In this document: piece after piece, positions 6,608-22,226 of the stretch | How positions within the stretch are numbered: the first letter of the stretch is position 1 | Layout of the letters: each line of letters starts with the position of its first letter | Assembly (NCBI GenBank): GCA_030425045.1 | Contig: JAUHVL010000033.1 | Location: 1 to 32,825 of the forward strand | Reading direction: 5' to 3' | Source of the DNA: a bacterium | GTDB taxonomy: Bacteria; Bdellovibrionota; Bacteriovoracia; Bacteriovoracales; Bacteriovoracaceae | Length of the DNA stretch: 32,825 nucleotides | The notes under the pieces: model-generated | What the model saw: only the letters and a program-made list of their open reading frames with translations | The model's database searches: none | Told to the model about the DNA's origin: nothing | Position numbers and translations under genes: made by a program

Positions 6608-6925
6608 ATGAAATTATTTGTTTTATTATGCTTATTTACTTCACACTCCGTTTTCTCTCAAACAAATGCTGAACTTCAGCAACAGTTACTCGATCTGCAA
6701 AAGAGAATGAATGCCATGGAAAAAGGGAAAACGAAAAGTAACGGATTAAAAGTGAAGGACTTTGGAGGAAAAGAAACGAATGCTCCAGCAAATAGAGTCG
6801 GCAATTCAGGTTCTCAGATTCCTGAATCAAAAATGAGAGAAGTTATGGAATCTCTAAAAAAGGGAGATGCTTATATGAAAGAACGAGATCAACTTTTAAA
6901 AGAGATGGAAGATGAAGGTCTTTAG
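6608..6925 (+). CDS. Small secreted protein with a short coiled coil
   Basis: I do not recognise this 105-residue protein. It begins with a signal peptide (hydrophobic about residues 3-17, likely cleavage after VFS or near TNA). A short heptad-like stretch follows (AELQQQLLDLQKRMNAME), then a Lys/Gly/Asn-rich low-complexity linker, and a charged helical C-terminus (MREVMESLKKGDAYMKERD and on). There are no cysteines after the signal peptide. The ATG has AGGA six bases upstream. The gene follows the PilZ gene by eight bases and overlaps the next gene by 14, so the three probably form one operon. A periplasmic or surface role is inferred only from the signal peptide. Confidence 0.7.
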   Translation: MKLFVLLCLFTSHSVFSQTNAELQQQLLDLQKRMNAMEKGKTKSNGLKVKDFGGKETNAPANRVGNSGSQIPESKMREVMESLKKGDAYMKERDQLLKEMEDEGL

Positions 6926-20725: not shown

Positions 20726-21869
20726 CATTTGTATTTTTTTATTATGTTTCAACGCTTTTTCATTTGAGTGGGGTTTATCCTATGCCGAATCTCGCCAGCA
20801 ATTCTTAAAAAGAGCAGACTCTCAAGTAAAGTTTTATGAAGATGCCATTATTGATTCGATTGCATTAAATGATAAAAATGATCTTTTTATTGACTACCTC
20901 TATATCCCAGCAAGAAAAACTCATCAGAAGCTATGGGTTATAAGCGCAGGTGTACATGGAATAGAGTCTTTTGTTGGAAGCTCTATTATTAACTGGTTAC
21001 TCTATGAAAAGATAGAAGATATGGTAAGTGATGATGTTGGCATTGTTTTAATTCATTCACTAAATCCTTATGGTTATTCTAACTTAAGGAGAGTGAATGA
21101 AAATAATGTGGATCTCAATCGAAACTTTATTTTAGATTTTAATAAATTTAAAAATCCAAATCTCGATTATGCTAACTTTGATAATTTTTTAAACCCCAAA
21201 GAACCCGTGAGGCATTCCTTATTATCAAAAATGACCTTTTGGATGAGAGCGGCTTTTAATGTTTTACGCTATGGAATGGATAAGTTAAGGGAGTCAATTG
21301 TTGGCGGTCAGTATAGTCATAAAAAAGGAATTTTTTATGGAGGTAATAAAAAAGAGAAAAGCACGCTCATTTTTGATCAAATAACATCACCAATTGTTTC
21401 AAAGTATCAAACGATCTTTCATATTGATCTTCATACGGGGTATGGAAAAAGAGGTAAACTTCATTTTTATGGCATGAGTAACTATAAAAGTGACACTTTA
21501 GAAAAGCTTAATGAGTTGTTTCGTGGATTTAACATTGATAGAGGAAGTGATAAAGACTTTTATCGTGTCCATGGAGATATTACGAGCTTTTTCATGCTGA
21601 AGTACCCAGATAAACTTGTGGTGCCCATGACGTTTGAGTATGGAACATTGGATTCACAGACAATACTAGGAAGTATGGAAAGCCTGTATCGAATAAAAAG
21701 AGAAAATCAATTTTTTCACTATGGCTCCCTTGGAGATAAAAATACAAGTCTTATTAAAAAAGACTTTGTTGAGATGTTTAATCCAAGTGATCAAAAGTGG
21801 AAATTAAAAGTTGAAAAAAGCACTGTTGATACATTTCAGGTTTTAATACCAAGATTTATGAACATATAA
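20658..21869 (+). CDS. DUF2817 / M14-like zinc carboxypeptidase-type protein
   Basis: Zinc-site motifs of the M14-related DUF2817 family are present: H100-GI-E103 (SAGVHGIESFVGS), H259 in HIDLHTGYG, and the presumed catalytic E327 in MTFEYGT. NPYGYSNLRRVNENNVDLN supplies the substrate-binding arginines and asparagines. A signal peptide is likely (hydrophobic about 20-34, end near AFS). I start at ATG 20658, with AGGTGGA just upstream; this overlaps the subtilisin gene by 68 bases in another frame. An ATG at 20625 is also possible but gives a poor leader. The pair of genes is probably co-transcribed and co-secreted. The substrate is unknown; a peptide or peptidoglycan fragment is plausible. 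Confidence 0.85.
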   Translation: MDSFLRSLWDSLCLVSLKNTLYSICIFLLCFNAFSFEWGLSYAESRQQFLKRADSQVKFYEDAIIDSIALNDKNDLFIDYLYIPARKTHQKLWVISAGVHGIESFVGSSIINWLLYEKIEDMVSDDVGIVLIHSLNPYGYSNLRRVNENNVDLNRNFILDFNKFKNPNLDYANFDNFLNPKEPVRHSLLSKMTFWMRAAFNVLRYGMDKLRESIVGGQYSHKKGIFYGGNKKEKSTLIFDQITSPIVSKYQTIFHIDLHTGYGKRGKLHFYGMSNYKSDTLEKLNELFRGFNIDRGSDKDFYRVHGDITSFFMLKYPDKLVVPMTFEYGTLDSQTILGSMESLYRIKRENQFFHYGSLGDKNTSLIKKDFVEMFNPSDQKWKLKVEKSTVDTFQVLIPRFMNI

Positions 21870-21880
21870 AAAATAAACTG

Positions 21881-22102
21881 ATCCCCTTAATTGGAGATAA
21901 GTTTTCGACGTAAACTAGTAATATTTATTAAGTTCCAAATATTAACAAAAAATAAATTATAACTTCCATGTTTTGCGATAACCAATATCGGGTCATGCTG
22001 CCCCGACCCTTCTGGCAAATATTGGTCATCTCTTATTTTTAAAAAGGGGATGTTTAAAACTTGCCCACGTAGTGGGTGCGACCACGACGGGAGCATTTTA
22101 AA
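21881..22102. ncRNA. Putative structured RNA element, family not recognised
   Basis: Several arms pair well. (a) An outer stem joins 21881-21901 and 22032-22051: ATCCCCTT with AAGGGGAT, then TTGGAGATAAG with CTTATTTTTAA, including three G-U pairs on the plus strand. (b) Inside it, GAT-A-ACCAATAT (21977-21988) pairs with ATATTGGT-C-ATC (22019-22030); within that, GGGTC (21990-21994) pairs with GACCC (22005-22009) around a ten-base loop. (c) On the 3' side, TTTAAAA (22053-22059) pairs with TTTTAAA (22096-22102) and encloses CCCAC-GTA-GTGGG (22064-22076). The local base composition is richer in G+C than its surroundings. A plus-strand transcript would end at the 22194-22226 terminator. Strand is unsure: wobble pairs favour plus in (a) but minus in (b). 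It could be a small RNA, a 3' UTR structure or a mobile-element remnant. Confidence 0.4.
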
Positions 22103-22193
22103 TGTCTAAAAACAGGGAAGTTTTTATAGGACTTTCAAGAATAGATTAAATTTCAAAAATAAAACATATCCATTTAAGCAAATCAGTTTGTAT

Positions 22194-22226
22194 AAAAAAA
22201 GCCTCTAATATAGAGGCTTTTCTTTT
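22194..22226. terminator. Bidirectional Rho-independent terminator
   Basis: AAAAGCCTCTA and TAGAGGCTTTT form an 11-base-pair stem around an ATA loop. Runs of T follow on both strands (TTTTCTTTT on plus, TTTTTTT on minus). It would end nrdBA transcription on the minus strand, 20 bases after the nrdA stop, and any transcript crossing the intergenic region on the plus strand. Confidence 0.88.

What the first reader, a model, noticed from the sequence alone, without database searches (positions are those of the whole stretch)
21881..22102. Unassigned structured element between the DUF2817 gene and nrdA
Seen: an outer stem of about 19 pairs including three G-U pairs (21881-21901 with 22032-22051) encloses a long hairpin (21977-22030). 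A second module (22053-22102) holds CCCAC-GTA-GTGGG. Within it GTGG (22072-22075) could instead pair with CCAC (22082-22085), so two folds compete. The element does not code, is richer in G+C than its flanks and ends at a strong terminator. I recognise no Rfam family (not 6S, SRP, tmRNA, RNase P or GEMM by eye). It may be a new small RNA; a decayed mobile element is the alternative.
Basis: partly seen in the sequence, partly recalled or inferred. Interest (0 to 1): 0.6.

Follow-up and report, generated by a model that had tools for sequence, protein, structure and literature searches.

The report
Mobile repeat carrying paired RNA modules
The "unassigned structured element" is one of more than 40 copies of a small jumping DNA repeat that carries, back to back and facing outward, two copies of an uncatalogued RNA fold found in several unrelated mobile elements across one bacterial phylum, with hairpin loops that look like docking sites for the global regulator CsrA.

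Summary
The host genome holds at least 41 copies of its core. The ends are imperfect inverted repeats (AAACTGATNNNYTTAAWTGG) and insertions are flanked by 9-bp target duplications; here TATAAAAAA, including the DUF2817 stop codon. The terminator at 22194-22224 lies outside the element. Inside are two diverged copies of one ~75-nt structured module in inverted orientation (22049-22126 on +, 21957-22030 on -). A covariance model trained without the 5' copy finds it on the opposite strand. G.U wobbles show that each module is structured on its outward-reading strand. The module occurs in 15 of 369 genomes of the phylum, in six families, within or beside IS110 elements, rve-type insertion sequences, a plasmid region, similar repeats and gene 3' ends. 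Stems covary strongly; no Rfam family matches. Loops a and c usually carry CANGGAYG-like sites as in CsrB, 26-28 nt apart, while the third loop does not; the host has an intact csrA. Most likely it is a MITE-type repeat whose 3'-UTR RNA modules bind CsrA. Mobility and RNA fold are well supported; CsrA binding is inferred.

The parts
21865..21873 (.). left target-site duplication TATAAAAAA (contains the TAA stop codon of the DUF2817 gene, 21867-21869)
   Evidence: same 9 bases at 22191-22199; across 22 scored copies flank positions -1 to -9 match at 73-86%, position -10 at 45%
21874..22190 (+). whole mobile repeat (317 bp), MITE-type, no ORF
   Evidence: about 40 further copies or parts in the same genome, 77-94% identical; alignment of full copies breaks at these ends
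21874..21894 (+). left terminal inverted repeat TAAACTGATCCCCTTAATTGG
   Evidence: pattern search: 40 sites in the genome against 1 for the reversed control
22170..22190 (-). right terminal inverted repeat CAAACTGATTTGCTTAAATGG
21957..22126 (.). core: two inverted structured modules; more conserved than the arms (0.93 against 0.88 mean column identity); also occurs without the terminal repeats
21957..22030 (-). 5' module, structured on the minus strand (outward): stem 22020-22030/21977-21987, hairpin b 22007-22015, hairpin a 21989-22005 (loop decayed here to CAGCATG), hairpin c 21961-21974 (CATGGAAG)
   Evidence: found on the minus strand by model R2, which was trained without any 5' module; 53 A.C and 0 G.T on + strand over 34 copies
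22049..22126 (+). 3' module, structured on the plus strand (outward): stem 22049-22059/22096-22106, hairpin b 22064-22076, hairpin a 22078-22094 with tandem G.A, hairpin c 22109-22124 with loop CAGGGAAG
   Evidence: 46 G.T and 1 A.C on + strand
22191..22199 (.). right target-site duplication TATAAAAAA
22194..22224 (.). host intrinsic terminator between DUF2817 and nrdA; outside the element, which was inserted between the stop codon and this terminator
   Evidence: inverted repeat of 14+14 nt; gene order

Best explanation
The feature is a non-autonomous mobile repeat of MITE type. It is moved by an unidentified transposase that recognises AAACTGA ends and makes 9-bp target duplications. Its cargo is two copies, in inverted orientation, of a ~75-nt RNA module: a closing stem holding a three-way junction with hairpins b and a, followed by hairpin c. 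Copies lie mostly within 30 bp of a stop codon, so they become 3'-UTR sequence of host mRNAs. Because the modules face outward on opposite strands, a transcript entering from either side contains one module in the correct sense towards its 3' end. The loops of hairpins a and c usually carry (C)A(N)GGA(Y)(G), and I infer that they bind a CsrA dimer, so that the repeats act as dispersed CsrA-binding 3'-UTR elements or as a collective CsrA sponge. Shown here: mobility signature, copy number, inverted duplication, covariation, strand of the structure, phylum-wide spread in unrelated mobile elements, GGA loops, csrA in the host. Inferred: transcription, CsrA binding, effect on hosts or elements.
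For: Copies, terminal repeats and 9-bp duplications. Position: of 31 scorable copies 15 lie between convergent genes, 13 between tandem genes, 3 between divergent genes and none inside an ORF. Inverted module pair: model R2, trained only on 3' modules plus two other genera, finds the 5' module on the opposite strand in nearly every searched copy (E 1e-10 to 3e-5). Covariation on module alignment A5: 19 of 26 pairs change on both sides (shuffled 7.9), score 0.350 against 0.131 shuffled and at most 0.068 slid. Strand: 0 G.T against 53 A.C read on + in the 5' module, 46 against 1 in the 3' module, with tandem G.A in hairpin a in several genera on the same strand. Spread: 8 of 129 genomes of the family, 15 of 369 of the phylum. 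Loops: GGA in hairpin c in 44/45 and 11/14, in hairpin a in 25/45 and 9/14, in hairpin b (internal control) in 1/45 and 0/14. Published CsrA sites: SELEX RUACARGGAUGU in hairpin loops, CsrB repeats CAGGA(U/A/C)G, one dimer bridging two sites 10-63 nt apart (PMC7652899). The loop GGAs are 26-28 nt apart in the 12 representatives that have both. csrA is present in G000, G069, G140 and G085, with a sub-threshold contig-edge fragment in G017; the host protein has L4 and R44.
Against: No transcript data. In most own 3' modules loop a is ACGAC, not GGA, and G248, G333, G238 and G050 have ACGAU, AUGAU or GUGAU there; G210's second copy has no GGA in either loop. So the conserved loop may be ANGAY rather than a strict CsrA site. 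In the window copy loop a of the 5' module is decayed (CAGCATG), so neither of its modules has both GGA loops. The orientation of the module relative to a neighbouring transposase varies: antisense in IS110 elements, sense after an rve-type transposase. Distribution is sporadic, not like a core Csr RNA. The transposase of the repeat was not found. A5 was fitted to the model's structure, which favours that structure.
Confidence: 0.47

Rival explanations
1. Same mobile repeat and same RNA fold, but the module works without CsrA: a transcribed 3'-UTR structure that protects or processes mRNA ends (nuclease barrier, RNase III or RNase E substrate), insulating host genes and the element from read-through.
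For: Insertion immediately after stop codons, none in ORFs; 3'-UTR positions in G238 and G210; hairpin c is an A-tract/U-tract hairpin in several genera; loop motif not always GGA.
Against: A mere nuclease barrier does not explain why loops a and c are kept while the stems are replaced, nor the near-constant spacing; G238 copies lack a U-run after hairpin c.
Confidence: 0.25
2. The hairpins act as DNA: single-stranded or cruciform recognition sites for a transposase, relaxase or site-specific recombinase, as in REP elements, attC sites or oriT (the complement of the loop, CATCCTG, resembles the MOB-P nic consensus YATCCTG; from memory).
For: Occurs in many kinds of mobile DNA, once upstream of a NikA-like gene where an oriT could be expected; inverted pair inside the repeat; G.T and tandem G.A are also tolerated in single-stranded DNA.
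Against: The structured strand carries GGATG, not CATCC. The repeat's own 9-bp duplications and terminal repeats point to a classical cut-and-paste type mechanism that needs no such hairpin, and a second repeat family with the same ends in G069 lacks the module.
Confidence: 0.18
3. The module is part of an IS110 bridge RNA/seekRNA or marks the preferred target of IS110/IS1111 insertions, and was captured by the repeat.
For: In G043 (three copies) and G017 it lies just after the IS110 transposase stop codon, in front of a conserved non-coding region. In Coxiella a MITE is an IS1111 target (PMC5896051).
Against: In G043 it is inside the repeated IS unit, not at its edge; its structured strand is antisense to the transposase; it also occurs with rve-type transposases, on a plasmid-like contig and in repeats without any IS110.
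Confidence: 0.06

Closest known systems
QMITE1 and QMITE2 of Coxiella burnetii (PMC5896051)
   Same: about 50 short non-autonomous repeats per genome, 7-11-nt direct repeats (QMITE2), placed in 3' UTRs, a source of small RNAs, linked to an IS110/IS1111-type element
   Different: no inverted pair of a covarying RNA module shared across families and mobile-element types was reported; GTAG REP instead of GGA loops; a different phylum
CsrB/CsrC and RsmX/Y/Z regulatory RNAs
   Same: CAGGA(U/A/C)G-type sites in hairpin loops, pairs of sites at a spacing that one CsrA dimer can bridge (PMC7652899)
   Different: only two sites per module, beside a three-way junction; multi-copy and mobile; no match to any Rfam family at gathering score; CsrA binding untested
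IS200 5'tnpA RNA (PMC12594629)
   Same: structured RNA from a mobile element with GGA motifs and a suggested protein-titration role
   Different: derived from a transposase leader; CsrA was only proposed there; unrelated sequence and structure
REPINs (paired inverted REP sequences)
   Same: two structured halves in inverted orientation, intergenic, many copies
   Different: here there are terminal inverted repeats and 9-bp target duplications; no RAYT was looked for; far larger modules

Membership tests
MITE | short, multi-copy, no ORF | tested here: met
   about 317 bp, at least 41 cores, no ORF of 80 aa or more within it
MITE | terminal inverted repeats | tested here: met
   about 21-bp imperfect repeats, 40 sites against 1 in the control
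MITE | target-site duplication | tested here: met
   9 bp, with a sharp drop at position 10
MITE | autonomous parent with the same ends | tested here: inconclusive
   no transposase found between such ends; three DDE_Tnp_1 matches in the genome were not examined for these ends; contigs break in the repeats
CsrB/RsmZ-type RNA | GGA in hairpin loops | tested here: met
   loop c 55 of 59, loop a 34 of 59, control loop b 1 of 59
CsrB/RsmZ-type RNA | match to a Csr/Rsm Rfam family | tested here: not met
   no match at gathering score; none among matches up to E 10 in the window
CsrB/RsmZ-type RNA | binds and sequesters CsrA | not testable with these tools
   needs a binding assay
CsrB/RsmZ-type RNA | host has CsrA | tested here: met
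IS110 bridge RNA/seekRNA | located in the non-coding region of an IS110/IS1111 element, guiding its recombinase | tested here: not met
   location true of only some copies (G043, G017, G248); most copies have no IS110 nearby
REPIN | REP sequence (GTAG/CGTC tag) with a RAYT | not tested
   no RAYT search was made

The most novel reading that the evidence does not exclude
Unrelated mobile elements of one bacterial phylum (MITE-type repeats, IS110 and rve-type insertion sequences, a plasmid) share a portable CsrA-binding RNA domain, arranged back to back in the repeats so that one copy is always sense, and by spreading it through gene 3' ends they rewire or titrate the host's Csr system.
Probability: 0.3. 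Interest if true: 0.82.

Novelty: new variant of a known kind. Interest (0 to 1): 0.62.

Why it matters
It is an uncatalogued structured RNA module with strong covariation that travels with several unrelated mobile elements across a bacterial phylum. If the loops bind CsrA, each genome copy places a regulator docking site at the 3' end of a host gene. That would be a concrete, testable way for transposons to enter a global post-transcriptional network. Even without CsrA, the two-strand outward arrangement is an unusual design that guarantees a sense copy whichever way the repeat is transcribed.

Tried and rejected
Rfam at gathering score for the window and 14 relatives: none. At E up to 10 the best matches were the flanking terminator scored as leader or small-RNA families, rejected as terminator similarity. 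Weak DNA matches in G003, G073 and G096 looked like chance: they lay in or beside ordinary genes. RNAalifold on the whole core gave almost no covariation and preferred the alternative inner pairing, because the two modules are structured on opposite strands; splitting them solved this. An apparent protein at the G069 contig ends was first taken for a transposase C-terminus; its first 14 residues match a host gene, so it is not used. One genome contigs pattern scan gave a single record, an Oligoflexia MAG; a viral scan gave nothing. A strict claim that GGA is invariant was dropped after G248, G333, G238 and the own 3' modules showed other loops.

Full report
What was checked first. The outer stem is however a property of this copy: 19 of 19 pairs here, 228 of 340 in 18 other copies.

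It is a mobile repeat. A DNA search of the window's own genome (3.97 Mb, 91 contigs) returned 43 matches, and the core alone 41 strong ones. Aligned full copies share both ends. The ends are imperfect inverted repeats WAAACTGATNNNYTTAAWTGG: 40 sites in the genome against 1 for the reversed control. The nine bases on either side match between left and right flank at 73-86% per position and drop to 45% at the tenth; mismatched left/right flanks give 3.9 of 9 (the automatic end-finder misplaced the end in a few of the 22 copies, among them the window copy, so these figures are conservative). In the window the duplication is TATAAAAAA at 21865-21873 and 22191-22199, and the left one contains the stop codon of the DUF2817 gene. 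The element therefore sits between that stop codon and the terminator at 22194-22224, which belongs to the host. Of 31 copies with usable flanks none interrupts an ORF, 15 are between convergent and 13 between tandem genes, and most lie within 30 bp of a stop codon. Many contigs end inside a copy, as expected of a repeat.

It contains one module twice. The core (21957-22126) is more conserved than the arms (0.93 against 0.88) and also occurs without the terminal repeats. A covariance model of the 3' module, trained on 3' modules and two other genera only (R2), found the 5' module on the opposite strand in nearly every searched copy at E 1e-10 to 3e-5. Aligned in the same sense the two modules share a closing stem, a CUUG-like linker, hairpin b, one U, hairpin a, one A, the 3' side of the stem, about two bases, and hairpin c.

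The structure is on the outward strand of each module. Over 34 own copies the 5' module has 53 A.C and no G.T combinations read on the plus strand, and the 3' module has 46 G.T and one A.C. Wobble pairs are thus tolerated only on the minus strand for the 5' module and the plus strand for the 3' module. Many of these cells are inherited together, so the number of independent events is smaller. Outside this genome the asymmetry is weaker (10 G.U against 5 A.C), but the tandem G.A in hairpin a, seen in several genera, lies on the same strand.

It is conserved as a structure. On alignment A5 (42 distinct modules) 19 of 26 pairs change on both sides (7.9 in shuffles), 136 cells against 43.8, and the covariation score is 0.350 against 0.131 shuffled and at most 0.068 when slid. 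A5 was fitted to the model, which favours the structure. A visible example is hairpin b: CCCAC-GAA-GTGGG here, CTTGC-GAA-GCAAG in G069.

Where else it occurs. Model R3 finds the module in 8 of 129 genomes of the same family and 15 of 369 of the phylum, in six families. Contexts: repeats with the same kind of AAACTGA end in G069, G140 and G022; IS110 elements in G043 (three copies, inside a ~1.65-kb unit about 99% identical) and G017, and next to an IS110-like gene in G248 (the G248 gene was called by eye); 11 nt after an rve-like transposase gene inside inverted repeats in G210, and at the 3' end of a similar gene in G333 (family called by eye, not by Pfam); between a NikA-like and a KfrA gene on a plasmid-like contig of G085, which is the Oligoflexia MAG record JADGAM010000102.1; directly after host genes in G238 (three copies) and G210. 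The sporadic, multi-copy pattern fits a module that travels with mobile DNA.

What the loops suggest. Stems are replaced between genera but loops a and c keep a consensus near CANGAYG, most often CAGGAUG, CANGGAUG or CANGGAYG. GGA is in loop c in 44 of 45 and 11 of 14 sequences, in loop a in 25 of 45 and 9 of 14, and in loop b, an internal control, in 1 of 45 and 0 of 14. The loop GGAs are 26-28 nt apart in the 12 representatives that have both (from the positions). Published CsrA sites are GGA in hairpin loops, SELEX consensus RUACARGGAUGU, CsrB repeats CAGGA(U/A/C)G, and one dimer bridges sites 10-63 nt apart (PMC7652899). The host encodes CsrA with L4 and R44, the residues highlighted in that review. 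CsrA binding is therefore the leading hypothesis, not a result. Against it, most own 3' modules have ACGAC in loop a, and several other genomes have CGA or UGA there.

How it would work. Inserted after a stop codon, the repeat is read as 3' UTR. Entered from the left, the transcript carries the antisense of the 5' module and then the 3' module in sense; entered from the right, the reverse. One module is thus presented in sense in either orientation. A CsrA dimer could hold loops a and c of that module. The effect could be on the host mRNA, on the pool of free CsrA, or on the element; nothing here decides.

Comparison with the known. As a mobile element it meets the tested MITE criteria, but no parent was found. 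As an RNA it resembles Csr/Rsm RNAs in its loops but matches no Rfam family. The nearest precedent is QMITE1/QMITE2 of Coxiella (PMC5896051), where MITEs give rise to small RNAs and lie in 3' UTRs. IS200 5'tnpA RNA has GGA motifs, and CsrA titration was only suggested (PMC12594629). I found no paper linking MITEs to CsrA, within an open-access library only. I rate it a new variant of a known kind.

Noticed in passing
G069 loci L121, L124, L125, L116: A second, different ~220-bp repeat family in G069 with the same kind of ends (AAACTGACCTACT...AGTAGGTCAGTTT) and direct repeats at the flanks, without the module; presumably moved by the same transposase.
   Followed up: partly
L157 1503-2023 and L156 downstream of 1496: IS110 elements of G043 and G017 share conserved blocks in the non-coding region beyond the module (for example AACCATAGGATG.TGAAGTT and TTTTCGGTAAGAG); candidates for their bridge RNA/seekRNA.
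   Followed up: no
L012/L059 (G000:C79:34836-35326) and L026 (G000:C35:42185-42626): Two cores side by side: a full repeat next to a core that lacks terminal repeats, so the core may predate or outlive the transposon ends.
   Followed up: partly
L191 694-794 (G209): A module match that is almost one long perfect hairpin (CGCGAAGCGCCCCGAAGGGGGCGGACC-ATGGAT-GGTCC...).
   Followed up: no
L157 2059-3072: A DDE_3 (IS630-like) transposase gene directly next to one IS110 copy in G043; in the other two copies the IS110 unit is flanked by 300-385-bp direct repeats.
   Followed up: no
L152 around 6700-6800: A long palindrome GTAAACTGTAATTACATAAAAATTTTATGTAATTACAGTTTAC between the module and kfrA on the plasmid-like contig, perhaps a KfrA or replication control site.
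   Followed up: no
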